From Mesorhizobium sp. WSM4311 (GTDB lineage Bacteria; Pseudomonadota; Alphaproteobacteria; Rhizobiales; Rhizobiaceae), in the NCBI RefSeq assembly GCF_002295115.1, contig NZ_NSFV01000013.1:62001-126000 (forward strand): a stretch of DNA of 64,000 nt, given 5' to 3'. Within the stretch, counting starts at the first letter, position 1, and each line of letters opens with the position of its first letter. Positions 5,528 through 51,044 of the stretch are shown here, piece after piece. Position numbers and translations under genes: made by a program. A model generated the notes under the pieces. The model worked only from the letters and a program-made list of their open reading frames with translations, was not told the DNA's origin and made no database searches.

Positions 5528-6115
5528 GTGCTACTGACCGAGGCAGAGCTGAAAAGAGTTGCGAATGCCAGTCGAGGACATAGAGCCGCATCGATCGTTC
5601 TAAAGGAAGAGACGGCCGCAGCTACAGCCAGATCGTCATTCGACGTTTTTCTGTCACATTCTTTCAAGGACGCAGAGATCGTTCTCGGTGTGAAGCGAAT
5701 TTTCGAGGAGCTTGGGTTCACTGCTTACGTAGATTGGGTCGAAGATTCACAACTGGACCGCACAAAAGTCTCCTCGGCCACCGCCGAGTTGCTGCGGACC
5801 CGTATGAGGCAGTCAAAGACGCTAATCTATGTGCATTCAAACAATTCTCCAGGATCCAGATGGATGCCTTGGGAGCTTGGCTTTTTCGATGGGTTTCGGA
5901 CCGCGGTAGCGGTTCTGCCCGTGGCAAAAAATTCTTCGGAAACATTCTCCGGGCAAGAATTTTTGGGCCTATACCCTTACATTGATGGGACAGGACCTGC
6001 ATTCCTGTTTATGAACAGAGGGACCGCGCCTCGCTCAAGAATAGGCTCTGTAAGCTCGACTGCTAACCTCACGTTTGCCAAATCCTGGCTTAAAGAATTT
6101 ACCGCCACAAAATAG
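5528..6115 (+). CDS. TIR-domain protein (candidate defence sensor or NADase)
   Basis: A 195-residue protein with a TIR domain at ~37-150: 'FDVFLSHSFKDAEIV' (strand A/box 1), 'LGFTAYVDW' (strand B), 'SKTLIYVHS' and 'SRWMPWELGFFDG'. E116 in 'PWELG' sits where the catalytic glutamate of NAD-cleaving TIR domains is found. Start is GTG; a GGGGGG run stands about 8 nt upstream. It is the first gene of a tight three-gene operon (17 bp then 9 bp gaps) with a SLATT-like membrane protein and a second, different TIR protein. Known TIR proteins of this kind make nucleotide signals or deplete NAD during phage infection; that role is inferred here. Confidence 0.85.
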   Translation: MLLTEAELKRVANASRGHRAASIVLKEETAAATARSSFDVFLSHSFKDAEIVLGVKRIFEELGFTAYVDWVEDSQLDRTKVSSATAELLRTRMRQSKTLIYVHSNNSPGSRWMPWELGFFDGFRTAVAVLPVAKNSSETFSGQEFLGLYPYIDGTGPAFLFMNRGTAPRSRIGSVSSTANLTFAKSWLKEFTATK

Positions 6116-8535: not shown

Positions 8536-8551
8536 CGGTATGCTATTTGCT
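8536..8551 (+). promoter_or_regulatory. Sigma-54-type promoter of the aminotransferase
   Basis: CGGTATGCTATTTGCT has GG at 8537-8538 and GC at 8549-8550 with ten bases between, and a perfect TTGCT -12 block. Transcription would start near 8562, about 40 nt before the start codon. No TGT-N10-ACA site was found upstream; the IS66 relic ends close by and may have removed it. The same element recurs in the decayed copy at 4822. Confidence 0.6.
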
Positions 8552-8603
8552 AAACAGGTGGCTGGCCGAGTGCCCTCCGCCAATTTATCGCGAGGAGAGG
8601 GAC

Positions 8604-10010
8604 ATGCGCTTGAGCAATCTGGGAACCGAGCAACTCCGGGAGAAGGATAGAAGCTTCGTCTTCCATCCTTCTACGCATCTGGCCAAGCACAGCCGAGGCG
8701 AAACGCCAAATAGGATTATGGCCGGTGCGGAAGGCGTCTATATCTGGGACACCGAAGGCCGAAGGAGCCTCGACGGTTTCGGAGGACTCTACTGCGTCAA
8801 CATGGGATATGGATGCACGGAGATCGCCGAGGCCATTGCCAGGCAAGCACACGAATTGCCGTTCGCGCACGTCTATGCCAGCCAAGGTACGGAGCCGGTC
8901 GCCCTGTTGGCAGAGGCCGTGGTCGAGTATTTCGGTCAGAACATGCGAAGGGTCTATTTCGGCCTCTCCGGTTCCGATGCCAACGAAACCAACATCAAGC
9001 TGGTCTGGTACTATAATAACATTCTTGGCCGGCCCGAAAAGAAAAAGATCATCTCGCGAAATCGCGGCTATCACGGGTCTGGATTGGTCACGGGTAGCCT
9101 AACTGGCCTTCCCTTCTTTCACAATTTCTTCGACCTGCCTCTGGATTTGGTGCGCCATACAACCACGCCGCACTATTACCGCCAGGCGCGTGTCGAGGAG
9201 AGCGAGGAAGCGTTCTCCCGGCGCTGTGCCGATGAGCTTGAAGCCTTGATCCTGGCCGAAGGACCGGAAACGGTTGCAGCTTTTATCGGAGAGCCGGTAC
9301 TTGGGACAGGAGGTATTGTGCCGCCCCCCAAAGGGTACTGGACGTCCATTCAAGCGGTGCTCGACAAATACGATATCCTTCTAATCGCGGATGAAGTGGT
9401 CTGTGGCTTCGCGCGAACCGGCGAGAAGTTCGGTTCCCACCTGTATAACATGCGTCCGGATTTCGTGACCATCGCAAAGGGTTTGAGTTCCGCCTACCTC
9501 CCCATCTCCGGGTCAATCATTGGCGACCGTGTCTGGTCGGTTTTGGAACAAGGAACTGAGAAGCACGGCGCACTCGGCCACGGCTGGACATATTCGGGGC
9601 ACACGCTTTGTGCCGCAGCCGCGCTCGCCAATATTCGACTGCTTAAAGAAAAAAATATTCTGGAGCATGTCCGCGATGTTGGACCGTATTGGCAAGACCG
9701 GATGAAGGCCGAGCTGGCGGGACATCCCATCGTTGGTGAAGTTCGCGGAGTGGGTATCCTGTCGGCCGTAGAGATGATGCGGGACCCAAAACAAAGGATA
9801 CCATTCGAACCCGACCTTCAGGTCGGGGTGCGCACTGCAGCTGCTCTGTTTGAGAATGGTGTCATCGGACGGGCCATGCCGCATGGCGACATCCTCGGTT
9901 ATGCCCCCCCCCTGATCATTACCCGAAAAGAGATCGACATCATTGTCGACGCGACGGTAAAGTCGGTCGATACCACCTATCGCGCGCTGAAGGCCGAGGG
10001 TGCCGTATGA
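8604..10010 (+). CDS. Class III (PLP) aminotransferase
   Basis: A 468-residue fold-type I PLP enzyme of the omega-/GABA-aminotransferase family, moving an amino group to pyruvate or 2-oxoglutarate. The visible signature is 'ILLIADEVVCGFARTG' (PLP-binding aspartate) followed by 'FVTIAKGLSSAYLPISGSI', where the lysine of 'AKGL' is the Schiff-base residue. 'HGWTYSGHTLCAAAALANI' is the usual downstream block. The ATG at 8604 is chosen over earlier codons because GGAGAGG stands directly upstream. It is flanked by a sigma-54 promoter and a terminator, so it is a single-gene unit. Substrate unknown; a decayed relative is present at 18640. Confidence 0.9.
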   Translation: MRLSNLGTEQLREKDRSFVFHPSTHLAKHSRGETPNRIMAGAEGVYIWDTEGRRSLDGFGGLYCVNMGYGCTEIAEAIARQAHELPFAHVYASQGTEPVALLAEAVVEYFGQNMRRVYFGLSGSDANETNIKLVWYYNNILGRPEKKKIISRNRGYHGSGLVTGSLTGLPFFHNFFDLPLDLVRHTTTPHYYRQARVEESEEAFSRRCADELEALILAEGPETVAAFIGEPVLGTGGIVPPPKGYWTSIQAVLDKYDILLIADEVVCGFARTGEKFGSHLYNMRPDFVTIAKGLSSAYLPISGSIIGDRVWSVLEQGTEKHGALGHGWTYSGHTLCAAAALANIRLLKEKNILEHVRDVGPYWQDRMKAELAGHPIVGEVRGVGILSAVEMMRDPKQRIPFEPDLQVGVRTAAALFENGVIGRAMPHGDILGYAPPLIITRKEIDIIVDATVKSVDTTYRALKAEGAV

Positions 10011-15329: not shown

Positions 15330-15345
15330 TGTCGGCATTCTGACA
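15330..15345 (+). promoter_or_regulatory. NifA upstream activator site (TGT-N10-ACA)
   Basis: TGTCGGCATTCTGACA is a perfect TGT-N10-ACA. Its centre is about 100 bp upstream of the start predicted from the sigma-54 element at 15411, within the usual range for NifA sites. Confidence 0.7.
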
Positions 15346-15410
15346 ACAATGGACATGAACCGCCGAACTATCAAGGCGACCAGGTTGTTGTCTAGCAATG
15401 GTTTTCCGAA

Positions 15411-15427
15411 TCGGCACGGCACTTGCG
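15411..15427 (+). promoter_or_regulatory. Sigma-54 promoter of the exporter/ligase-dioxygenase operon
   Basis: TCGGCACGGCACTTGCG matches the consensus TGGCACG-N4-TTGC with one mismatch (T to C before GG). GG at 15413-15414 and GC at 15425-15426 are ten bases apart. Start of transcription is expected near 15438, about 70 nt before the exporter gene. Confidence 0.75.
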
Positions 15428-15509
15428 TTACCAAAAACAAGTACGCCGCGGCACGGATCGCCCAAGAGGCTGAACGACCTGATCTGTTTGACCCTCGCAG
15501 CAGGGGTGG

Positions 15510-16454
15510 ATGGCTAACACAAAGGAAACTTTGAAGGTGGACGTTTTCGAAAGTTCTCCAATACCTGTCAGGAAAACACGGACGCCATCTTTCTCGGTGG
15601 ATCTAGCCTTGCTGGGAGTCGCATTCGTTTGGGGGGCGAGCTATCCGGTCGGGAAAGGCGCACTGTTCTACGCGCCGGTTTCGATACTTGTTCTTTATCG
15701 CTTCCTGATTACTACGATCATTACGGCAGTGGCTGCAAGACATGAGATCGCATTGGTCTCCTGGGGCGATTTCATCCGCGGCTTCGCATTGGGAACAATA
15801 CTTTTTTGCATCTTTATTGCTGAAACTTACGGCGTTGCATCGACAAGCGCAATGAACACGGCCTTGATCATATCGCTTTGTGTGATTTTCACGCCGAGCA
15901 TCGACTATGGGCTATCACGGCGACTTCCACCTACGGGCATTTTGGCAAGTGCTGCCATAGCGTGCATCGGTGTCGGCATTCTCACTGGCGGGATCAGCAG
16001 GTTCAGCCCGGGTGACGCGCTTGTCTTGGGGGCCGCGATTCTGCGAGCGGTTATGGTCGTTTCCACCAAACGCCTTCTGGCCGGCCGGCAGATTTCATCT
16101 GCAGCCCTGACGGCCATCCAAGGATCGACGGTGGCAACACTTACTTTCGTTTTGGCCGTCGCTCAGTTCGGAATTTCAGGCCTTGTTGTGAGGGCCACCC
16201 TTCAGTTTTGGGGCGCTGTTGCCTTCCTTGCACTCTTCTGCACCCTCGCTGCATTCTACATTCAAAATGCCGCAGTGAGAAAATCCACACCGACACGGGT
16301 TGGCTTCTTGATGGGAACAGAACCTTTTTTTGGTTTCGTTCTAGCGCACCTTCTTCTGAATGAGCCTTTGACAGTACCGAGCTTGATAGGCGCAGGCCTC
16401 GTCCTCGCTGCGACGTTTGCTGGCATCTGGTTTGAGAGCAGGACATCCAAATGA
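15510..16454 (+). CDS. EamA/DMT-family transporter
   Basis: 314 residues with about ten hydrophobic helices in two EamA repeats ('[20 protein letters not shown]' begins repeat 1; '[20 protein letters not shown]' repeat 2). Drug/metabolite transporters of this kind export amino acids and small metabolites across the inner membrane. Its stop overlaps the start of the next gene by 4 bp (ATGA), so both are translationally coupled. With the NifA-type promoter upstream, it is a good candidate to export the product of the downstream enzyme in nodules. Confidence 0.9.
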
Positions 16455-18433
16455 ACCCCATCTTGGCTTCCACCAAACCCGCCATCGGCGGCATTTCGAG
16501 TTTTGAAGATCTGGAGGCTTTTCCGGACCGAACCGCACCAGTTGCAACCATGTTCAGCGGCGGTCTCGACAGCACCTATCTTCTCTACAAGCTGCAAAGC
16601 CTTGGCTTTGCGAACATTGAAGCTGTCGCAGCGGATGTCGGAACGCGCATCGATCAGCCTTTGTTGGAACGGACGGCAGCCATGTTCGGCGCGCGCTTTG
16701 TCTGCCTCGAAGGGCGGGATGCCTTTGTCGAACAAGGCGTGAAATCAGCCATTCGAGCCCACGCCAAGTACCTTGGCATCTATCCGTTGAGCAGTTCGTT
16801 GAGCCGTCCCATAATCGCATCTTTGGTTGTTAATCATGCTAGGTCAATCAACTCACGGCTGGTTCTTCATACAGCAAACCTTTCTCAAAACAGTCTTCCG
16901 CGCCTTAACAATAGCATTAAGCGCTCAGGATTTTCCGGCAACTTCGGCAGTCCGTATGAATGCTCTGTGATATCCCGACAACAGAAGACCTCCGACCTGT
17001 CCAAGTGTGGAGCGACTTTTGTGGCGGACCGCACGTGGAGCGCGGACGAAAACCTCTGGTGTCGGGAATTCGAGTCGGGGCCTTTGGAAGATCCCGAGAA
17101 CTTTTCCATCCCCGAGGAGGCATTTGCTTGGACGCGCCACATTCCCGCAGAGCAGCCGGTAGAGATCAAACTCGGGTTTGCAGACGGAAGTCTCGTGTCA
17201 ATTGATGACCGTGATGTTGCATTGGTCGACGCAATCCCGTTCCTGAATAACACGGTCGGCAAATTCGGGCACGGCCGCTTTGTCGGGCTTGAACACATCA
17301 CAACCGGCCAAAAGGTTCTCGAAGTCCGCGAGGCCCCTGCCGCGGCCATTATCTTCGACGCGCTGCGTCACCTCGAAACCGCTTCTCTTGACGTGGCATC
17401 AATCGTTTTGAAGCAAGGGCTTGAGCAAGCCTGGTCCCAAGAGGCGGTTTCAGGTGCATGGGGCAGTACTATTCACCAGATGTGCGAACGGGCCATTGCA
17501 TCCGCCCTCGAGGGCGTTAGCGGGAGCGTCAGCTACATAGTCGATCACACACGCTTTTTACCTCGGTCGATCCGAGCCAGGACGCCGAGATACATTAGGG
17601 ACCGCGACCTTTGGGAATACCAAGCCGCAACCCACATAGCGTTGTCCAAAGCGTTCCGTCCTCGCCAAGTCACCAAAAGGGAGACACCCGTGGAAAACAA
17701 CGCACCCCAGGCGCCGGCCAACCTCAGTCAACAATGCACTGACGGTCTGGTGACAAATGGATGGTGGTTTTCAAAAGGCGAGCGCGCCGAAGCCTGCTTT
17801 GGCATCGAAATTGATGCAGCCTGGAAGAACTTTGCTGACCATTGGAATCGACTTCTTCTCGATGAATACATGCGTGACGGCGGAACATATCGTTACCGGC
17901 GCTATAGCGCTTTTGAATATGACGCGACTGACGGAATCTTTAGGCTCCTACCCCACGCCCCCTACGAACAATCAAAAAGTGTCAATCATCTGAATGGCGG
18001 CTTCAAGCGCCACTTCGAGCCCCTTGAAAACTCCTTTATAGACCATCCCGTCTTAGAAAAGATTCTGACAGGTTTCTGCAGAATTCTATGTGAAGCCGCC
18101 CGACATGATCGTTGGAATATCAAGATCCATCCCTACCGGATTGTCGCGCGCGATGGTGTAAATGGCAAACCGGCACCCGAGGGCCTTCACCAGGACGGGG
18201 TGGACTTCATTGCTTGCTATATGATTGGGCGGGTCAACGTCACCGGCGGCATGAGCATGATCACCGACGCCTCAAAGGAGTTCCTCGGCGAGGTCGAAAT
18301 GAACTCCCCGAATGATTTTGTGATCTGCAACGACCGCGAAACCTTTCACGATGTATCGTCGATTGTGGCCGAAAACCTGAAAATGCCGTACGCTTATCGC
18401 GACGTCCTTGTGATCGCCTTCGAGAAATTATAA
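16451..18433 (+). CDS. Argininosuccinate-synthase-like ligase fused to a 2OG-Fe(II) dioxygenase
   Basis: A 660-residue two-domain enzyme. Residues ~30-400 resemble argininosuccinate synthase: the ATP-pyrophosphatase loop '[14 protein letters not shown]' (S36-S41), '[19 protein letters not shown]' and '[11 protein letters not shown]' as in ArgG. Residues ~435-660 resemble the isoleucine-dioxygenase (2OG-Fe_Oxy_2) family: '[11 protein letters not shown]', '[13 protein letters not shown]', and an iron triad H580-x-D582 ('GLHQDG') with H633 ('ETFHDVS'). The expected chemistry is joining of a citrulline-like ureido group to an amino acid, plus hydroxylation of an amino-acid part. It is coupled to an exporter under a NifA/sigma-54-type promoter. 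No argininosuccinate lyase is nearby. Product unknown. Confidence 0.85.
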
Positions 18434-18639: not shown

Positions 18640-19276
18640 TGAGAAATTATCCTCATGCTGTCCGACGAGGTGGTCTGCGGCTTCGGAGGCACCGGGAACT
18701 GGTTTGGTAGCCAGACATTTGGGATGGAACCGGACATGCTCTCGATCGCCGGGGGGCTTTCATCCGGTCACCTGCCCATTGGCGGCGTCATTATCTCGAC
18801 AAGATTTATCAATGCGCCGCTGACGAGGCCCACAAGGTCGGCGTGTTCGGTCACGGTTTCACCTACTCCGGTCATCCGGTGATAGCGGCCGTCGCCGCCG
18901 AGGCGATCAGGATCTACAGCGAGATCGATTTCGTGACCCAGGCGCGTCGTCTCGGCGATCACTTGCATGGAGCCCTCGCGGACGCGCTCGGCGACCATCC
19001 GCTTGTCGGTGAAGCCCGCGGCCGCGGCTTCATCGCGGGGGTTCAGATCGTCGAGGATCGTGCGCCCGTCGCGTCTTCGCGCCCGAGCTGAGGATCGGCG
19101 ATGTCGAGCGGCGGTGCCGCGAGCACGGCGTCATGATCCGCAATATGGGAGAAGTGCTTGGAATCTGTCCGCCCTATATAATCACCGAAAGCGAGATCGA
19201 CCCCTTGGTTGACGGCATTCGTTCTGCACTCGACGGCGCCGCTGCTGCGAATTCCCGGGTCGGTCGGGTGGCATGA
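18640..19276 (+). pseudogene. Class III aminotransferase (gabT-like) remnant
   Basis: C-terminal half only, in three frames: 'MLSDEVVCGFGGTGNWFGSQ' with 'MLSIAGGLSSGHLPIGGVII' (from 18640), then 'FGHGFTYSGHPVIAAVAAEA' (frameshift near 18838), then 'REHGVMIRNMGEVLGICPPY' (frameshift near 19085). These are the usual class III blocks, including the AGGL position where the PLP lysine (AKGL) is lost. It is followed by a gabD-like remnant. The 206 bases before it (18434-18639) hold nothing recognised. Confidence 0.8.
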
Positions 19277-19384
19277 GTTCCAGCATTAAGACCGACTGCT
19301 TCACTTCAGTGGATATTATCGAGCAAACGCTCACCCGAGGGGTGCACTTCATCCGTGTCCGGTACAAAACGTCACCCATGTCTC

Positions 19385-19634
19385 AGGTCGGGCACGCCGC
19401 TCGCCAACGACACCGAGTTCGGCCTCGCGGCCTACTTCTACACCGGCGATCTCGGTCGCGCCTTCCGCGTGATGGAAGGACTGAAGTACCGGCGTCAATG
19501 AAGGCCTGATCACCACGCCGGAGGTGCCGTTCCGCGGCGTCAAGGAATCGGGCCTCGGCAAGGAAGGCGGCCTCCAGGGCATCGTGGATTATCTCGACAC
19601 CAAACATGTCTGCATCGGCGGTCTCGGCGTCTAG
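19385..19634 (+). pseudogene. Succinate-semialdehyde dehydrogenase (gabD-like) C-terminal remnant
   Basis: Reads 'GTPLANDTEFGLAAYFYTGD', then after a frameshift near 19492 '[20 protein letters not shown]' and '[19 protein letters not shown]'. This is the C-terminal end of a GabD-type ALDH. With the preceding aminotransferase relic it suggests a lost gabT-gabD pair. Confidence 0.8.
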
Positions 19635-21771: not shown

Positions 21772-22470
21772 TCAAAAGCGGTAGGTGACACCTGCGCCTA
21801 TCAGCCAGGGATCGAGCTCCGCCTTCCCCGTCAGCTTCGCGCCGGTCACCGTGACGTCGAAGTCCGGCTTCAGGAAAAGCTTCTTCACGTCGAAGTTGAG
21901 GCCCCAGTGCTGGTCCACCATGTAGTCGAATCCGACCTGCAGCGCCGTGCCGAACGTGTTCTTCACCTTGAGAGCATCAGCGCTGCCAGTGTCCTGGTTG
22001 TAGAAGATCGTGTAGTTCACGCCGGCGCCGACATAAGGCTTGAACGCGCCGAGATCGGTAAAATGGTACTGCAACGTGAGTGTCGGCGGCAGCAGCCAAA
22101 CTTTGCCGATGTTGCCCAACCCTCCGATCGTCCCTTGGCCCGCGATGTTGGCATAAGTGGTACCGAGTATGAGTTCGGCGGCGATGTTGTCGGTGAAGAA
22201 ATACGAGATATCGAGTTCCGGCGTCACCGTGTCCGAATACGAAAGACCGGAGCCGGGAAGCGTATCAACGTAGCCCAGATCTTTCGTAACGACGCCCAAC
22301 GCCCGCAGGCGGACCTGCCAAGGGATTGGCGCTTCGGTGACCGAGGCTCCCGTCTCCGCCAGGACGGTCTCTGCTTGCGCAGGCTCCGCGGCGACGGCCT
22401 GCTGTCCCACCATGATCAGGGCCACCGCCGCTGCTGTTGCCCGCGCTACGCCCATTCGCGTTCTCGCCAT
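21772..22470 (-). CDS. OmpW-family outer membrane protein
   Basis: 232 residues. The N-terminus is a signal peptide ('ATAAAVALIMVGQQAVAAEP'). The rest is an eight-strand OmpW-type barrel: 'WQVRLRALGVV', 'PELDISYFFTDNIAAELILG', 'LPPTLTLQYHF', 'KPYVGAGVNYTIFY', 'GTALQVGFDYMVDQHWGLNF', 'DPWLIGAGVTYRF' with the terminal phenylalanine. ATG at 22470 has AGGAG upstream. It follows the prolyl oligopeptidase gene by 38 bp on the same strand and shares its sigma-54 promoter by inference. OmpW proteins let small hydrophobic molecules cross the outer membrane. Confidence 0.9.
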   Translation of the reverse strand: MARTRMGVARATAAAVALIMVGQQAVAAEPAQAETVLAETGASVTEAPIPWQVRLRALGVVTKDLGYVDTLPGSGLSYSDTVTPELDISYFFTDNIAAELILGTTYANIAGQGTIGGLGNIGKVWLLPPTLTLQYHFTDLGAFKPYVGAGVNYTIFYNQDTGSADALKVKNTFGTALQVGFDYMVDQHWGLNFDVKKLFLKPDFDVTVTGAKLTGKAELDPWLIGAGVTYRF

Positions 22471-22508
22471 GAGATTCACTCCTTGATGTTCAGAAAGGAT
22501 GCACTGCA

Positions 22509-24671
22509 CTATTTCGTCTCCTGCTCGAATGAATTGTTGATGGACCTCAAATGCCCCTCTTGCGTTGCAACGCGTTCCGCCGTCTCCGGAGGGTGATCGT
22601 TGAAGCCGATTGCGCTGCGGAGAAAATTGGTGCCTAGACTGATGAATGCGGCTTGCTCCCGATTGTCCTCGCCGCAGCCGTGCCCGCCTGCGCTGGCCTC
22701 GTAGAAGTAAGCGGGATAGCCAAGAGCCTGCAGTTTTGCGGCCATCTTGCGCGCATGGCCCGGATGGACGCGGTCGTCGCGTTTCGTGGTGGCGATCAGG
22801 ATAGGCGGATAGGGCTGTCCCGGCGCTGCGGCGTGATAGGCGGAGATTTCCTTCAGGAAAGCCCAATCGTGAACCTTGTCCGGATCGCCATATTCGTCGA
22901 TCCAGCTCGCGCCCGCCAAGAGCTTGGTGTAGCGACGCATGTCGATAAGCGGTGCTGTGCAGAACAGAGCCCCGAAATGCTCAGGATAGCGGGTCAGCAT
23001 GTTTGCGATCAGCAGGCCGCCATTTGAGCCACCCTCGGCGGCAATCCGCCTCGGCAGGGTGATGCCCCTTCGCACGAGGTCGGAGGCAACGGCGGCGAAA
23101 TCGTCGTGGGCGAGACGCTTGCCCTCCCTGCGCCCGGCTTCGTGCCAGCGGGTGCCGAACTCGCCGCCGCCGCGGATGTTCGCCTCGACACACGTGCCAC
23201 CGCGCTCGAGCCACAGCTTGCCCAGCGGGGAGTTGTAGTAGGGCAGGAATGATACGCCGAACCCGCCATAAGCGGAAAGGTGAATCGGAGCATCTCCGTT
23301 CCCGTTCGCCGGACCAACCTGCGTATAGGGGATCAGCTCATGATCGATAGAGACTGCCTCGTGGCGCGTGACCACCAGTCCGGATGCATCGAAATTCTCC
23401 GGGCTGCGCTTCAGGATTGCTGAAGCGCTGAGAGACGGCGCGGCATTCAGATCGAACAGCAAGAGCTGCGGCGGCGTGATCGGATCCTGAGCACAGATCA
23501 GGACCTCTCCATTGGTCTCGTGAACTGCCGCATCGAATGACCAGACGTCGACAGTACCTTCGGCGGGCAGGGTGTTCAGGACTCGGCGCGTCCATTCCTG
23601 GTGGCCGGGAGTGAACATCTCGAAACGCGGTGCGAGATTGACGAGGTAAGAGATAATGAGCTTCCCGTCATTCCAGAAGAATGACTGCATGGAGCGCCTT
23701 TCCCCTGGTTGAAACAGGGTCTCAAAACGGCGTCCGCCGGCGAGGAAAGTGGAAAGCGAGATGACGATCAGCGCGTCGGCGGGATGGGTGGTGCCTCCCA
23801 CCGTCCAGGGCTTGCGCGGCCTTACCGCCAGCCAGTCGCCGAAGACCCGCCACGACGCGTCGCGAGGAAGATCGATCTGCCTCCTCGGCCCGCTCCTATC
23901 GCCGATCCAGCTGATCTTCTCGAAGAAGGCCGGCTGCTCGATGAACCAAAGGCGCTCGCTGCGGCCGGTGCGGTCCGAATGACCAGACACTTGGAAGCTT
24001 TCGAACCCGGCCTCGAAGATTGCCGGCGTGGTGAGGGGATCCGCGTCACGCTTCCACAGTCGAACTGTGCGCGCATAGCCGGAGCGGGTGGCCATGCCAT
24101 TACCAAGCGCACTGGAAAGCAGAAGCGTGTCAGGGTCCAGCCAATTAACGTAGCCTTTGGCCTCGGGGAGGTTGAAGCCGTCGGCGACAAAGCTCAGAGA
24201 AATCAGGTCGAATTCGCGATGCACGACCGCGTCGCTGCCGCCGCGCGACAGGCGCAGAACGGCTCTTTCCCGTCTCTCCGGCTCGATGGACGCGCCGTCC
24301 CAGATCCAGTCCTCTCCGTCGCTAGCCGCGAGAGCATCCAGATCGAGCAGTAGCTCCCATTGGGGATCCGCCTTCATGTAGGCGGCAAGGGTGGTCCGGC
24401 GCCACAGTCCGCGTGGATTACCGTCATCTCGCCAGTAATTGTAGAGGTACTGACTACGGCGCGCGATCAGGGGAAGATTGTCGCGATTGTCGAAAATGGC
24501 TGTCAGAGCCGCGCGGTCGCGCTCGAACTGCGTTCCACCGAAGTGCTTCAGAGTCCTTGCCGATTGGCCGGCGGCCCAGGCAAGTGCCCGCTCGCCCTCT
24601 ACATCTTCAAGCCAGACATAGGGATCGTCGTCGGGAGCATCAAGCGTTGGACGGACATCAAATGCGTTCAT
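22509..24671 (-). CDS. Prolyl oligopeptidase family serine peptidase
   Basis: 720 residues with an N-terminal beta-propeller ('DDPYVWLEDVEGERALAWA' start block) and a C-terminal alpha/beta-hydrolase domain. Catalytic residues are Ser in 'GGSNGG', Asp in 'TTKRDDRVHPGHARK' and His in 'SAGGHGCGE'. Such enzymes cut short peptides after proline and usually lack a signal peptide, as here. A near-ideal sigma-54 promoter and NifA site lie upstream, and an OmpW gene follows in the same operon. A fragment of this gene's 5' end plus its promoter is duplicated at 31860-32316. Confidence 0.92.
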   Translation of the reverse strand: MNAFDVRPTLDAPDDDPYVWLEDVEGERALAWAAGQSARTLKHFGGTQFERDRAALTAIFDNRDNLPLIARRSQYLYNYWRDDGNPRGLWRRTTLAAYMKADPQWELLLDLDALAASDGEDWIWDGASIEPERRERAVLRLSRGGSDAVVHREFDLISLSFVADGFNLPEAKGYVNWLDPDTLLLSSALGNGMATRSGYARTVRLWKRDADPLTTPAIFEAGFESFQVSGHSDRTGRSERLWFIEQPAFFEKISWIGDRSGPRRQIDLPRDASWRVFGDWLAVRPRKPWTVGGTTHPADALIVISLSTFLAGGRRFETLFQPGERRSMQSFFWNDGKLIISYLVNLAPRFEMFTPGHQEWTRRVLNTLPAEGTVDVWSFDAAVHETNGEVLICAQDPITPPQLLLFDLNAAPSLSASAILKRSPENFDASGLVVTRHEAVSIDHELIPYTQVGPANGNGDAPIHLSAYGGFGVSFLPYYNSPLGKLWLERGGTCVEANIRGGGEFGTRWHEAGRREGKRLAHDDFAAVASDLVRRGITLPRRIAAEGGSNGGLLIANMLTRYPEHFGALFCTAPLIDMRRYTKLLAGASWIDEYGDPDKVHDWAFLKEISAYHAAAPGQPYPPILIATTKRDDRVHPGHARKMAAKLQALGYPAYFYEASAGGHGCGEDNREQAAFISLGTNFLRSAIGFNDHPPETAERVATQEGHLRSINNSFEQETK

Positions 24672-24821: not shown

Positions 24822-24836
24822 GCAACCTTCGTGCCA
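24822..24836 (-). promoter_or_regulatory. Sigma-54 promoter of the prolyl oligopeptidase operon
   Basis: On the minus strand TGGCACGAAGGTTGC is a perfect match to TGGCACG-N4-TTGC. Transcription should start near 24811, giving a leader of about 140 nt. Confidence 0.82.
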
Positions 24837-24882
24837 ACTGGGAAAATCGTTTCGGAACAATGCGATCGCTCTGGAAGCGTTG

Positions 24883-24898
24883 TGTCACATGTCCGACA
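24883..24898 (-). promoter_or_regulatory. NifA upstream activator site (TGT-N10-ACA)
   Basis: TGTCACATGTCCGACA is a perfect TGT-N10-ACA palindromic frame. Its centre is about 80 bp upstream of the predicted start, the classic NifA spacing. Confidence 0.72.
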
Positions 24899-31029: not shown

Positions 31030-31158
31030 GGAGACATTGGCGAAATCTACGATCTCTATAGCAACGTCAAGGAGAAGCGCGAGGTGTTGCAGATGTGGTC
31101 AAATCACATCGAATGGCTGATCAAGCAGGCTGCGGATGACGCTCTGGCGGCGTAGCTG
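31030..31158 (+). pseudogene. Phage-type integrase C-terminal fragment
   Basis: Reads 'GEIYDLYSNVKEKREVLQMW' and 'SNHIEWLIKQAADDALAA', identical in character to the C-terminus of the integrase relic at 42059-43015. Its stop overlaps the end of the convergent M41-like gene by ~38 bp. Confidence 0.8.
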
Positions 31159-31753
31159 CTGGCATGGGCGGAAGATGCGGCGCAACAATCGTCAGAGCCT
31201 CATCGAATTGGAGATCATGCTTGACCAGCAAATGCGCGGCCAATGCTTCGATGGCTGACCAGTGATCGAGTACTAGCCGGGCCGTGCGATCTTCGATCCG
31301 CCTCCAACGGGGGCGGCGCGGCATCAGGAACCGCAACTCACCATAGATTCGCTTGGCATCCGCGTAGTCGCTGCTCCCCTCATTCCCATCGGACGCATTC
31401 ATCGCCATATCGCGCGGGTCCAGATAGCCTTCGAATGCGGATTCTGCAAAAGGACCTGCCAGACACGCAACTATCTCTTGGATCGCTTCATCGCGTTGGA
31501 AATGTCGATCCATATCGTTCTCGAAAATCGGCTTTAGCTCCGAGGTGAATCCTTGCGCTGAATAGAAAACCGTGCCTTCGACAAAACCACCGCACTCTCC
31601 GTCACCGGCGTCGGGGTAAATACTAACACTTGAGAAAGCAGGGAGTTCACGGTCGTCGTCGAACATCTGACGGTGCAAAACGATGGCGGCCACCGCGTGC
31701 CCGGCTTCGTGATGCGCCACAGACGGGAGAAGATATTGGGAGGCTACATTCAT
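31121..31753 (-). CDS. M41-like zinc metallopeptidase-domain protein, copy 1
   Basis: 210 residues. A zinc-binding HExxH is near the start ('HHEAGHAVAAIVLHR', residues ~14-28), as in FtsH-type M41 peptidases, and 'EIVACLAGPFAESAFEG' fits the helix holding the third ligand. No membrane or AAA domain, so it is a stand-alone peptidase-like protein of unknown target. Its ATG overlaps the stop of the upstream chimeric frame (ATGA), so both are translationally coupled and probably driven by the sigma-54 promoter at 32179. A near-identical copy is at 41464. Confidence 0.8.
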   Translation of the reverse strand: MNVASQYLLPSVAHHEAGHAVAAIVLHRQMFDDDRELPAFSSVSIYPDAGDGECGGFVEGTVFYSAQGFTSELKPIFENDMDRHFQRDEAIQEIVACLAGPFAESAFEGYLDPRDMAMNASDGNEGSSDYADAKRIYGELRFLMPRRPRWRRIEDRTARLVLDHWSAIEALAAHLLVKHDLQFDEALTIVAPHLPPMPAATPPERHPQPA

Positions 31754-32178: not shown

Positions 32179-32193
32179 GCAATTGTCGTGCCA
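32179..32193 (-). promoter_or_regulatory. Sigma-54 promoter, duplicated copy
   Basis: On the minus strand TGGCACGACAATTGC, a perfect TGGCACG-N4-TTGC. It points to the chimeric frame and M41-like gene. Confidence 0.75.
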
Positions 32194-32239
32194 ACTGGGA
32201 AAATCGTTTCGGAACAACGTGATCGCTCTGGCAGCGTTG

Positions 32240-32255
32240 TGTCAGATGTCCGACA
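32240..32255 (-). promoter_or_regulatory. NifA upstream activator site, duplicated copy
   Basis: TGTCAGATGTCCGACA keeps the TGT-N10-ACA pattern at the same spacing from its promoter as the first copy. Confidence 0.65.
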
Positions 32256-41320: not shown

Positions 41321-41405
41321 GGGCGCGTGTCGACTTCCCAACAATGTCAGACAGGAGACGCAACGCTATCGGAGCGATCGCATTGCCCGAAACGATTTTC
41401 CCAGT

Positions 41406-41420
41406 TGGCACGACAATTGC
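41406..41420 (+). promoter_or_regulatory. Sigma-54 promoter before M41-like copy 2
   Basis: TGGCACGACAATTGC, a perfect TGGCACG-N4-TTGC, in an inverted partial copy (41345-41440) of the prolyl oligopeptidase promoter region. A decayed NifA-type site TGTCAGACAGGAGACG (41345-41360, ACG for ACA) lies upstream. Expected start of transcription is about 30 nt before the ATG at 41464. Confidence 0.75.
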
Positions 41421-41463: not shown

Positions 41464-42093
41464 ATGAATGTAGCCTCCCAATATCTGCCGCTTGTGGCGC
41501 ATCACGAAGCCGGGCACGCGGTGGCCGCCATCGTTTTGCACCGTCAGACGTTCGACGACGACCGTGAACTCCCTGCTTTCTCAAGTGTTAGTATTTACCC
41601 CGACGTCGGTGACGGAGAGTGCGGTGGTGTTGTCGAAGGCGCGGGTTTTTATTCAGCGCAAGGATTCACCTCGAAGCGAAAGCCGATTTTCGAGGACGAT
41701 ATGGATCGATGTTTGGAACGCGATGATGCGATCCGGGAGATAGTTGCGTGTCTGGCAGGTCCTTTTGCAGAATCCGCATTCGAAGGCTATCTGGACCCGC
41801 GCGATATGGCGATGAATGCGTCCGATGGGAATGAGGGGAGCAGCGACTACGCGGATGCCAAGCGAATCTATGGTGAGTTGCGGTTCCTGATGCCGCGCCG
41901 CCCCGATTGGGGGCGGATCGAAGATTGCACGGCCCGGCTAGTACTCGATCACTGGTCGGCCATCGAAGCATTGGCCGCGCATTTGCTGGTCAAGCATGCT
42001 CTCCAATTCGATGAGGCTCTGACGATTGTTGCGCCGCATCTTCCGCCCATGCCAGCAGCTACGCCGCCAGAGCGTCATCCGCAGCCTGCTTGA
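41464..42093 (+). CDS. M41-like zinc metallopeptidase-domain protein, copy 2
   Basis: 209 residues, almost the same as the protein at 31121-31753, with the HExxH in 'HHEAGHAVAAIVLHR' intact. Differences are scattered ('GDGECGGVVEGAGFYSAQGF' against 'GDGECGGFVEGTVFYSAQGF'). Here the sigma-54 promoter lies directly upstream, without the chimeric leader. Its 3' end overlaps an integrase relic running the other way, as in copy 1. Confidence 0.8.
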   Translation: MNVASQYLPLVAHHEAGHAVAAIVLHRQTFDDDRELPAFSSVSIYPDVGDGECGGVVEGAGFYSAQGFTSKRKPIFEDDMDRCLERDDAIREIVACLAGPFAESAFEGYLDPRDMAMNASDGNEGSSDYADAKRIYGELRFLMPRRPDWGRIEDCTARLVLDHWSAIEALAAHLLVKHALQFDEALTIVAPHLPPMPAATPPERHPQPA

Positions 42094-47507: not shown

Positions 47508-50183
47508 TTACTCATCCTTGCCGCCCAGCGGCGGGCCGACCACCAAAATGGCGGGCTCGGCCGAAAGCAGCTTTTTGGCCGCCGCCTTGACCTGTTTGAG
47601 CGTCACCCGACCGATGCTGCGGGCGCGACGCTGGTTGTAGTCGACGTCGGCCTTGTGAATCTGCAAATCCAGGAGCCGGTCTGCAATCGAGCGGGTCGAG
47701 CCCAGTTGGTCGATGGCATAGGCGCCGATCAGGTGCTTCTTCGACGCCTTGAGCTCGGCCCCGGTCGGTCCTTGCTGCGCCATCTGCTTTACCACATCTC
47801 GCACGATGCTCAGTGTTTGGGCAGCGCAGTCCGAGCGTGTCTCTGTCGTAACCAGAAGCGAGTCAAGGGTTAGTTCAGAGCTGACGTGATAGGCAAGGCC
47901 GCGTTTTTGACGTACCTCCTCGTAAAGGCGGGAAGTCAAGTATGAGCCGCCAAGGATGTCGTTCAGCAGCACGGCCGCGTAGAAATCCGGCGCGCTAGGC
48001 TTCACGCCAGGCCAGGCCAACGTCAGCGAAGTCTGCGGCAGGTCGTAGTTCTCCTCCACCAGTTGACCGAGTTTCGGCGCGACATCGTAGACGGGGACGA
48101 GGGTTTGTTGCTCAGGCAAATCACCAAACAGCTGGTCAAGCCTTTCCCTCAACGTGTTCGCGTCAATGTCACCCACCACGGCAATATGGAGCCCGTCGCG
48201 AGCGAAAATGGCCTGGTGGAAGGCGCGGAGGTCGGACGGCGTGATGCCGGGCAGGCTCTCTTTTGTGCCTTCTCCCAGCCTTGAACAAGGATGCGCGCCA
48301 TAGATCGCGCGCAGCCATTTGCGCTGAGCGATGGCGTTAGGGTCTCGCTCGCTGCCGACGATGCGGGAGACAATCTCGGCGCGGACGCGATCGATCGGCC
48401 CCTGCTCGAAGCGCGGCGCGTTCAGCGCGAGCCGAAGCAGGCCGAACGCCGCGTCCTGCTTTTTGGAAAGCATGCACATCGATCCGTAGATGTCGTCGCT
48501 TTGCGCGTCCAAACTCATTTCGGCGCCGGCATGGTCGAGCTTCACCTGGAAGGCACCGCTGTCGTAATGGCCAGCGCCTTCGATGAACAGGCCGGCCATC
48601 AGTTTGGCCATCCCCTCCTTCCCGACCGGGTCCTGCTTGGTGCCGCCCTTGAAGGCAAAGCCGATGTTGACGATTTCCACTGTGTGGTCCTCCACCAGCC
48701 AGGCGATGATGCCCTTTTCGGACTTCACCTCCTGGATGTTCATCGCAGCATGGGGCCGAGCGCCGAGCGTCATCTCTTGATTCTCCGTCTTGGGCAAGAG
48801 ATAGCCCGTGGTCGAACGGTCGAACGCGAGATAGCGGGCGGCAACTGCTTTGATTTGCTCGGGGGTAACCTTGCGGATGCGATTCGGCCGTTCCTCGACA
48901 TCCTTCACGGTACCGCCGGTGGCCAGCGTCGAGCCGTAGATGCTGGCGAGCCAGTCCAGGTTGTCTTCCGCAAAGATCATATTGAGCAAATAGTGGTCCT
49001 TGGCCTTGCCTAGTTCCTCGTTGCTGACACCATCCTCGGCAATGCGGGCAACTTCGGCAGCGGCCGCCGCTTCGAGATCAGCCAGCTTGGCATCGCCGCG
49101 CGGTGCGCCATAGATGGCGAACTTGGTGTCGTCGAGCATAGTGCCCTGGAAATAGACGCGGGCGCTGGAAGCGATACCTTGCTGGACAGCGAGCGCCTGG
49201 TAGAGCCGGCCGCGGTTACCGCCGCCGAGAATTTCGGCCAGCAGGTCGAGCGCTTCGGCCTCGCCCGGCTTGGCGGTGTGGTAGGACGGCACCACCCACT
49301 GCGTCGAAAAACTGGGCACGCTGACGCGGGCGTCTGAGAGCGTGACGGTGCGCCTGGTGTTCTGCTCGGGCTCAACCGGCCGGATGCGCGGCGGCAGGTC
49401 AGGTCCGCGCGCCACCTTGCCATAGGTCTTTTCGGCCAGCGCCCGCACCGTGTCCGGTTCGACATCGCCGGCCACGATCAGCACGGAGTTGTTGGGCCAG
49501 TAGTACTTTTCATAGAAGACGGTGGCGTCGACGCGGTTCAGCTGCTCGATCTCCTGCATCCAGCCGATGATCGGGATGCGATAGGGGTGGTTCTGCCACA
49601 GCGTCGCGTCGATCTCCTCATGGAGAACGTCCTGCGGGTTGGTGTCGGTGCTTGAGCGGCGCTCCTCGATGACCACATCGCGCTCGGTCTTGACGACATC
49701 GTCGGTCAGGATGAGGTTTCGCATTCGGTCGGCCTCGAAGCTCATCATCAGCTCGAGCGCCGACGGCGCCACTGTCTGATAGAAGGCGGTGTAGTCGGAG
49801 GAGGTGAAGGCGTTGTTGGAGCCGCCGATCTCGAACACTGCGCGGTCGAATTCGCCGCCCGCATGGTTGGTCGTCGCCTTGAACATCAGATGCTCGAAGA
49901 AATGGGCGATGCCGGATTTGCCCGGCGGCTCGTCGGCGCTGCCGATCTTGTACCACACCATGTGGGTGACGATCGGCGCCCGGTGGTTGGGAATGACGAC
50001 CACCTCCATGCCGTTGTCGAGCACGAAATCCCTCGCCTTGCCGTCCTCCCATGCGACGGGGATCGGAGCCGGCCCCGCGCCGACCAACTCGGACGCAACG
50101 GACGTCCTGCGAAGCCCATGAGTGCGGGGCTTGCTTGGTAGTTCTGGTAGGGAGAGTGGGGTTATGGGCTGCGTTCCTGGCAA
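47508..50183 (-). CDS. M16 family zinc metallopeptidase, two-domain form
   Basis: 891 residues made of two M16 halves in one chain. The first half has the inverted zinc motif HxxEH in 'GIAHFFEHLMFKAT' and the distal glutamate in 'ALELMMSFEADRMRNLIL'; 'TERDVVIEERR' follows. The second half ('WLVEDHTVEIVNIGFAFKGG' onward) lacks the zinc motif, as in pitrilysin-type proteins, and shapes the chamber. No signal peptide is obvious in the first 30 residues, so location is uncertain. The start is TTG at 50183 with GAGGA 9 nt upstream. Likely degrades peptides. Confidence 0.9.
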   Translation of the reverse strand: MPGTQPITPLSLPELPSKPRTHGLRRTSVASELVGAGPAPIPVAWEDGKARDFVLDNGMEVVVIPNHRAPIVTHMVWYKIGSADEPPGKSGIAHFFEHLMFKATTNHAGGEFDRAVFEIGGSNNAFTSSDYTAFYQTVAPSALELMMSFEADRMRNLILTDDVVKTERDVVIEERRSSTDTNPQDVLHEEIDATLWQNHPYRIPIIGWMQEIEQLNRVDATVFYEKYYWPNNSVLIVAGDVEPDTVRALAEKTYGKVARGPDLPPRIRPVEPEQNTRRTVTLSDARVSVPSFSTQWVVPSYHTAKPGEAEALDLLAEILGGGNRGRLYQALAVQQGIASSARVYFQGTMLDDTKFAIYGAPRGDAKLADLEAAAAAEVARIAEDGVSNEELGKAKDHYLLNMIFAEDNLDWLASIYGSTLATGGTVKDVEERPNRIRKVTPEQIKAVAARYLAFDRSTTGYLLPKTENQEMTLGARPHAAMNIQEVKSEKGIIAWLVEDHTVEIVNIGFAFKGGTKQDPVGKEGMAKLMAGLFIEGAGHYDSGAFQVKLDHAGAEMSLDAQSDDIYGSMCMLSKKQDAAFGLLRLALNAPRFEQGPIDRVRAEIVSRIVGSERDPNAIAQRKWLRAIYGAHPCSRLGEGTKESLPGITPSDLRAFHQAIFARDGLHIAVVGDIDANTLRERLDQLFGDLPEQQTLVPVYDVAPKLGQLVEENYDLPQTSLTLAWPGVKPSAPDFYAAVLLNDILGGSYLTSRLYEEVRQKRGLAYHVSSELTLDSLLVTTETRSDCAAQTLSIVRDVVKQMAQQGPTGAELKASKKHLIGAYAIDQLGSTRSIADRLLDLQIHKADVDYNQRRARSIGRVTLKQVKAAAKKLLSAEPAILVVGPPLGGKDE

Positions 50184-51044
50184 AGTGATCTGTTCCTCAT
50201 TTTGAAGGATCTATGTCTCCCGAACGCCTATTGGGAGAAAGTGGATCGGCACGCGACGCCGAGCCACATGAGCCGTCAGCGTGTTGCTGGGCCTGACGCG
50301 AGCCTCATCTTTGGATGCGTCCGGGAAACTTTCGGCATGGTGAGGCCATGGGAAGTCTGCTCGTTATCCATTGGGTGTTTGCGGATACCTGAGCATGCCC
50401 CGTGCCAAGTAAGAAAGCCCCGATTCGCAAGGTTTGATCCAACCTTGATACTTGCGATATCCGACATTGTCGGGCATCCGACAGAAAGCGCCTTTCGCCG
50501 GCGCGCCGGCTATGACGCTCGCCTCCTCCGGCGTGACGACGATCCTTTGGCGGGCGCCGCGCACACCGATCTGCCCGCCTATCAGCACCGCGACATCGAA
50601 GGACAGCGCGATCGTGACTGGATGGGTCTTACGCAAACATGCAGCAGTGCCACCGCGATCAGGACTTCATCCGCCCCACAAAGACCCGAGCGCGAGGGAC
50701 GACGTGTAAGGCAACATGTCATCCTCGATAATGATGCCGCGCATAAAGAGGTAAGGTCCCTCGTCGTACCGGCGAGCCCCTTCGCTGGGTCTCGCGAGGG
50801 TCTGGTTTGCGAACGTCGACCGACAGCATCACGGCATGGGCGGCCCCATCGGTAGGCAAGCATTGACCGTGCCATCAGCGTTGAGGCAGCGCAGAGCCCA
50901 ATTTCCCGGTGCCAGCCGGTACGTTGGAGCTTCAACTGTGGCCAGCCAAGCGGGCCGAGGCCGTGAAACTCCTGATACCCTGGACCGTCCGGATTGCAAC
51001 GCACGACGCCTTGGTCTCGCGCCAACGTCCATTGACGCTCAGCG
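50184..51044. other. Intergenic stretch, nothing recognised
   Basis: About 860 bases of probably decayed sequence. Several frames are open on both strands but none shows a domain I recognise. Confidence 0.4.

What the first reader, a model, noticed from the sequence alone, without database searches (positions are those of the whole stretch)
15330..18433. NifA/sigma-54-type operon for an ArgG-like/dioxygenase fusion and an exporter
A perfect TGT-N10-ACA (15330-15345), a near-consensus -24/-12 promoter (15411-15427), an EamA exporter and, overlapping it by 4 bp, a fusion of an argininosuccinate-synthase-like ligase (SGGLDS loop) with an isoleucine-dioxygenase-like domain (H580, D582, H633). This layout suggests that bacteroids make and export a hydroxylated, guanidino- or amidino-type amino acid conjugate. 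I know of no named pathway with this fusion.
Basis: partly seen in the sequence, partly recalled or inferred. Interest (0 to 1): 0.88.

Follow-up and report, generated by a model that had tools for sequence, protein, structure and literature searches.

The report
Nitrogen-fixation-controlled nitrile-making operon in rhizobia
A symbiotic Mesorhizobium carries a short operon, probably switched on in root nodules by the nitrogen-fixation regulator, that looks built to turn an amino-acid amide into a nitrile, oxidise it and export it, so nodule bacteria may hand their plant host an unusual cyano amino acid.

Summary
A perfect TGT-N10-ACA (15330-15345) and a -24/-12 element (15412-15427) precede an EamA exporter gene that overlaps a 660-aa fusion gene by 4 bp. 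The promoter pair occurs 6 times in the 6.33-Mb genome (reversed control 0), 4 of them in this window, and recurs upstream of the operon in other symbionts.

The N-terminal domain is not an aspartate-adding ligase. It is 62% identical to ArtA, an ATP-dependent nitrile synthetase (PDB 9leh/9lei), keeps the ATP loop and ArtA's Q146, S197 and D199, and lacks the aspartate and citrulline ligands present in 26 of 26 true ArgG rows. The C-terminal domain is a PF10014 oxygenase; its characterised solved relatives (HrmJ, BelL, IDO) act on free amino acids.

The fusion is a minor variant: in 14 of 18 loci outside the window's near-identical clade the two enzymes are separate genes. Exporter, synthetase and oxygenase stay together as far as Vibrio.

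Best reading: NifA-controlled bacteroids dehydrate glutamine (or asparagine) to a cyano amino acid, oxidise it and export it. Families and promoter are well supported; substrate, product and role are inferred. My searches found no report of such an operon.

The parts
15330..15345 (+). NifA-type upstream activator site TGT-N10-ACA
   Evidence: Sequence; same site or TGTCGGCCTTCTGACA at 77-82 bp from the -24/-12 element in 8 of 15 loci compared
15412..15427 (+). -24/-12 (sigma-54) promoter element CGGCACGGCACTTGCG
   Evidence: 10 of 12 fixed consensus positions here, 11-12 in the relatives outside the near-identical clade that have the pair; pair found 6 times in the genome, reversed control 0
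15510..16454 (+). EamA/DMT-family exporter gene, 314 aa
   Evidence: PF00892, 84.6 bits against cut-off 28.2; homologue beside the enzyme genes in 27 of 34 loci scanned
16451..18433 (+). Fused gene, 660 aa: nitrile-synthetase-like domain plus 2-oxoglutarate oxygenase; overlaps the exporter gene by 4 bp
   Evidence: model mean pLDDT 84.7, pTM 0.61
16451..17638 (+). ArtA-type nitrile synthetase domain (residues 1-396)
17651..17716 (+). Low-confidence linker, residues 401-422, with a possible internal start GTG at 17690 behind AAAAGGGAG
   Evidence: pLDDT under 50; sequence
17717..18433 (+). PF10014 Fe(II)/2-oxoglutarate oxygenase domain with H580, D582, H633
   Evidence: 198.8 bits; HrmJ, BelL, IDO and 3pl0 structures

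Best explanation
This is a NifA/RpoN-type operon that makes and exports a nitrile-bearing amino acid. Shown by sequence: a NifA-type promoter, an EamA exporter, an ArtA-type nitrile synthetase domain and an amino-acid-type 2-oxoglutarate oxygenase, kept together across several proteobacterial lineages. Inferred: NifA activates the promoter in the nodule. The N-terminal domain adenylates the side-chain amide of a free amino acid, most likely L-glutamine (asparagine next), and expels AMP, giving 2-amino-4-cyanobutanoate (or beta-cyanoalanine). The PF10014 domain abstracts a hydrogen from C3 or C4 of that amino acid (or of the amide before dehydration) and hydroxylates it, or forms a ring as HrmJ and BelL do. 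The EamA protein exports the product.
Against: No activity, substrate or expression was measured. S197 and D199 are also in true ArgG, so of the three residues only Q146 discriminates. ArtA's substrate and organism were not seen in a primary paper. The oxygenase is only 18-28% identical to characterised structures. The NifA site is not perfect in R. mesoamericanum, R. altiplani and Rhizobium sp. 007, which keep a -24/-12 element. Carriers are few (17 of 145 in the genus), some copies are damaged (L013, L014, M. huakuii exporter), and one relative group keeps only a remnant. The Burkholderia pair lacks the exporter homologue and sits with NRPS genes.
Confidence: 0.6

Rival explanations
1. The nitrile chemistry is right, but the operon is a general antimicrobial or nutrient trait carried on symbiotic plasmids and islands, with no nodule role; the promoter is a hitch-hiking symbiosis-island element.
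For: Patchy distribution, damaged copies and carriers without a known nodule life such as A. vitis and Vibrio halioticoli. A related promoter block is present three more times in the window.
Against: Activator site and -24/-12 element keep a 77-82 bp spacing while their distance to the exporter match varies from 88 to 364 bp, as expected of selected control elements; the three compared non-rhizobial loci and A. vitis lack the pair.
Confidence: 0.22
2. The first domain is an ATP-dependent ligase or amidation enzyme of another kind (for example joining an amine or aspartate to a carboxylate or ureido group), and the product is a hydroxylated conjugate.
For: ArgG fold and ATP loop kept; ArgG-type domains can change nucleophile.
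Against: Below the cut-off of all four ArgG equivalogs; aspartate and citrulline ligand positions replaced against 26 of 26 ArgG rows; 62% identity to a nitrile synthetase.
Confidence: 0.1
3. The operon is decaying and makes nothing of consequence.
For: Frame break in L013/L063, altered end in L014/L062, broken exporter frame in M. huakuii 583, remnant in R. tropici CIAT 899.
Against: Open frames in the window and 100% identity in several genomes; dN/dS 0.12-0.27; 77-82 bp promoter spacing kept.
Confidence: 0.06

Closest known systems
ArtA/NitB nitrile synthetases (PDB 9leh, 9lei; NF038212-type sequences)
   Same: 62% identity, same residue numbers for the amide-interacting residues, ATP loop
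   Different: The nearest ArtA relatives listed are 405-aa class fungal proteins without this oxygenase; here the enzyme is bacterial, joined or adjacent to an oxygenase and an exporter, behind a NifA-type promoter
HrmJ/BelL (6-nitronorleucine cyclopropanases) and IDO, PF10014
   Same: Same fold and metal ligands; act on free amino acids
   Different: 18-28% identity; no nitro-forming partner seen here, a nitrile-forming partner instead
Hil operon of Pantoea and Pseudomonas
   Same: PF10014 oxygenase, in some species with an RhtA-type exporter (PMC3684760 passages)
   Different: Second oxygenase and dehydrogenase instead of a nitrile synthetase; LysR control described there, NifA-type promoter here
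NifA-RpoN regulon of M. loti R7A
   Same: Same promoter architecture; includes non-nif genes such as acdS and an OmpW porin (PMC3538637 passages)
   Different: 'Argininosuccinate', 'dioxygenase' and 'exporter' as word starts: 0 hits for the first two and 0 for the third as a term in the text; no such operon in the promoter table as far as shown
Argininosuccinate synthetase (ArgG)
   Same: Fold, ATP loop, part of the pocket
   Different: Below every equivalog cut-off; aspartate and citrulline ligands replaced

Membership tests
ArtA/NitB-type nitrile synthetase | Scores above the curated cut-off of the ArgG-related family NF038212 | tested here: met
   543.2 bits against 425; that ArtA scores above it was not run
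ArtA/NitB-type nitrile synthetase | Amide-interacting residues Q146, S197, D199 | tested here: met
   only Q146 separates from ArgG
ArtA/NitB-type nitrile synthetase | Groups with known nitrile synthetase sequences in a tree | tested here: inconclusive
   Next to a clade of 22 rows, 19 named as fungi, 100/99; fork joining it with the rhizobial rows 91/86; ArtA itself was not a row, but its close relative P0016 was
ArtA/NitB-type nitrile synthetase | Catalyses ATP-dependent amide-to-nitrile dehydration | not testable with these tools
   Needs enzyme assay
Argininosuccinate synthetase | Above an ArgG equivalog cut-off | tested here: not met
   165.3/334, 160.1/512, 147.7/268.2, 65.7/603 bits
Argininosuccinate synthetase | Aspartate and citrulline ligands | tested here: not met
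   N143, S148, E206, R293 where 26 of 26 ArgG rows have T, D, S, Y; assignment of the ligands recalled
PF10014 2OG-Fe oxygenase | HxD...H metal ligands and family score | tested here: met
   198.8 bits against 23.1; H580, D582, H633, aligned with the H, D and H of five structures
HilB (hydroxyisoleucine dioxygenase) | Above the NF042428 equivalog cut-off | tested here: not met
   24.4 bits against 350
HrmJ/BelL cyclopropanase | Cyclises a free amino acid with an acidified terminal carbon | not testable with these tools
NifA/RpoN-controlled operon | TGT-N10-ACA upstream of a -24/-12 element at NifA spacing, conserved | tested here: met
   nifH of the same genome as control
NifA/RpoN-controlled operon | Expression lost in nifA and rpoN mutants | not testable with these tools
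   Needs reporter fusions

The most novel reading that the evidence does not exclude
Bacteroids convert an amide into a reactive cyano amino acid, for instance 2-amino-4-cyano-4-hydroxybutanoate (a cyanohydrin that could release HCN) or a cyano-cyclopropyl amino acid resembling the ethylene precursor ACC, and export it to act on plant enzymes. It would be a nitrogen-fixation-controlled signal or inhibitor, comparable in role to rhizobitoxine (recalled) but made by a different chemistry.
Probability: 0.15. Interest if true: 0.92.

Novelty: new variant of a known kind. Interest (0 to 1): 0.72.

Why it matters
What nodule bacteria export besides fixed nitrogen is poorly known. An operon behind a NifA-type promoter with a predicted nitrile-forming enzyme, an oxygenase and an exporter offers one concrete, testable metabolite class. 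It also gives bacterial, operon-encoded homologues of an enzyme family whose structure is known from ArtA, and the tree places the fungal sequences inside the alphaproteobacterial ones, so the fungal enzymes may derive from bacteria.

Tried and rejected
Adenylation-domain motifs in NRPS genes near two relatives (M. huakuii L074; B. cenocepacia L080/L100) were read by eye. They gave no clear Gln or Asn code and were not used. The PDB codes 9LEH, 9LEI, 9DQP, 9DQ0 and 8JMS gave no paper, so the primary ArtA and NitB papers were seen only as cited in PMC13060819. Paper searches that gave no rhizobial or bacterial precedent I recognised in the listings (top 4-20 rows only); the library holds open-licence papers only. 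Association with nifH was tried: 16 of 17 operon carriers have nifH over the cut-off (the 17th, G446, has two pieces), against 35 of 46 non-carriers drawn from the 128 without a match. This is not discriminating. A rhizopine-like catabolic partner was not searched for. In one search six rows (L021, L022, L030, L039, L043, L045) were read on the wrong strand or frame and dropped; one search repeated the ArgG comparison with 26 of 27 loci (L031 dropped, no frame with the motif). Foldseek 'viral' and 'pdb' searches were not run; the VIA-align second look was.

The rival's 0.22, the novel case and the interest are unchanged.

Full report
Setting. The window is positions 62006-126005 of contig C4 of a 6.33-Mb genome. 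It carries nifH (contig C27, 434.9 bits with PF00142) and a nifA over its curated cut-off (contig C18, 552.3 bits). Identical or near-identical copies of the gene lie in Mesorhizobium strains, several with 'Ca' in their names, which I recall as standing for chickpea.

Observation. The activator motif alone is common: 13 in 64 kb. Activator plus -24/-12 at N45-75 occurs 4 times in the window against none in 100 shuffles, and 6 times in the genome against none for the reversed pattern. Three of the four window sites are copies of one block, so the independent sites are fewer. Of 15 loci compared, 8 have a perfect activator site 77-82 bp from a -24/-12 element (window, L007, L014, L015, L016, L074, L077, L101; the first three are near-identical strains). 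Three have only the -24/-12 element (L010, L011, L078). Four (A. vitis L075; L071, L072, L081) have no element above 8 of 12 and no perfect activator site beside it. Among the 8, the distance from the element to the exporter match varies from 88 to 364 bp. The genome's own nifH has TGTCGTGTCCGTGACA at -209 and a -24/-12-like CTGGTACGCTTTTTGCGA near -102. In G399, whose contig length equals that of the M. amorphae CCBAU 01570 contig in L015, the operon lies about 10 kb from nifH.

The oxygenase. PF10014, 198.8 bits, with H580, D582 and H633. Nearest solved structures: 3pl0 (27% identity, uncharacterised), HrmJ entries (25-28%), BelL (28%), 8w8h (20%), IDO (18%). HrmJ and BelL abstract a C4 hydrogen from free 6-nitronorleucine and close a cyclopropane; a carboxylate analogue was only hydroxylated (PMC10764440 passages). 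Other PF10014 enzymes hydroxylate free Leu, Ile or Thr at C4, and a related operon can include an RhtA-type exporter (PMC3684760 passages). A free amino acid is therefore the expected substrate.

Conserved unit. In one search, 34 loci were scanned (three are second copies of a record, and 13 are the window's near-identical strains, second copies included). Synthetase and oxygenase are together in 29, and an EamA homologue is beside them in 27. The five without an oxygenase are remnants or lie at contig ends (L017-L020, L079). The triad reaches A. vitis, Vibrio halioticoli and related genomes (L081; L072, L098, L099) and the lineage of L071, at 38-52% identity for the last five, with the exporter gene after the enzymes there and before them in rhizobia. 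L101 adds one more full triad. Three Bradyrhizobium-type loci (L076, L109, L110) lack that exporter homologue but have another gene beginning like the EamA gene annotated in L076, divergent beside the enzymes in two and about 8 kb off in L076, and a GNAT-type gene on the other side. B. cenocepacia has the enzymes with a TauD-type oxygenase between them, an AMP-ligase and NRPS genes, and no EamA homologue found in the stretches searched. Frequencies: 17 of 145 in the genus; 2 of 396 in an order sample, both of the genus; 2 of 265, 3 of 295 and 1 of 300 in three other groups; 4 of 397 over the family cut-off in a phylum sample. It is rare and patchy.

Fusion. Of 18 loci outside the near-identical clade that have both enzymes (L010, L011, L015, L016, L071, L072, L074-L078, L080, L081, L098, L099, L101, L109, L110), 4 are fused (L010, L011, L078, L109) and 14 have separate genes. 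By coordinates the separate genes overlap by 4 bp in L016, L074, L077 and L101 and are 21 bp apart in A. vitis. In the window the frames have merged and the junction reads GTGG behind AAAAGGGAG, so a separate oxygenase could still be started at 17690. Fused proteins 39-47% identical to the window's also exist (four of these, P0090, P0093, P0101 and P0103, are listed without the N-terminal part). The partnership does not depend on the fusion.

Mechanism. Shown: promoter anatomy, families, residues, synteny, and purifying selection (dN/dS 0.22-0.27 exporter, 0.20-0.27 synthetase, 0.12-0.14 oxygenase in five comparisons; a sixth saturated). Inferred: NifA-dependent expression; amide adenylation and AMP loss to a nitrile; oxidation at C3 or C4; export. 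Glutamine is preferred because ArtA serves auranthine, whose cyanoethyl side chain I recall as glutamine-derived; asparagine is the main alternative. Order of steps, product and role are open.

Verdict. The promoter and gene observation is confirmed; the aspartate-ligase and guanidino reading is not supported; a nitrile-forming operon behind a NifA-type promoter is the best reading (0.6). I found no description of it in the searches listed under Tried and rejected, which cover open-licence full texts and of which I saw the top rows only.

Noticed in passing
window 24822-24898 (promoter), 22509-24671 and 21772-22866 (minus strand): A NifA-type promoter pair faces a prolyl-oligopeptidase-family gene (PF00326) followed by an OmpW-family gene; an OmpW porin gene is NifA-controlled in M. 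loti R7A.
   Followed up: partly
window 32179-32255 with 31121-31753 (minus); 41328-41420 with 41464-42093 (plus): Two near-identical ORFs (209-210 aa) with a HEAGH motif and no Pfam match each lie behind a copy of the same NifA-type promoter block.
   Followed up: partly
window 47508-50183 (minus), promoter near 50400-50483: An M16-family peptidase gene (PF00675, PF05193) has TGTCGGATGCCCGACA at -300 and TTGGCACGGGGCATGC at about -224: a further NifA-type pair that the strict pattern missed; M16 peptidases of rhizobia that act on host peptides are recalled.
   Followed up: partly
L076 12444-12902, L109 10945-11442, L110 11066-11602: A GNAT-type acetyltransferase gene (annotated in L076, similar ORFs in the other two) is convergent with the enzyme pair in three Bradyrhizobium-type loci: a possible self-protection or tailoring gene.
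   Followed up: no
L080/L100 (B. cenocepacia plasmid), L074 12062-18511 (M. huakuii): Relatives of the enzyme pair sit with or near NRPS genes, which suggests that cyano amino acids may also be built into peptides.
   Followed up: partly
P0070, P0097 and P0095, P0098: Relatives of the synthetase are fused to an octopine-dehydrogenase-type domain (PF02317) or to alanyl-tRNA-synthetase-type domains (PF01411, PF07973; Aspergillus).
   Followed up: no
window 18640-19500: The sequence after the operon reads like an aminotransferase class III fragment with no long ORF; an intact class III gene lies at 8547-10010.
   Followed up: no
window 5528-6115: A possible TIR-domain gene, below the Pfam cut-off (26.8 against 28 bits).
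   Followed up: no
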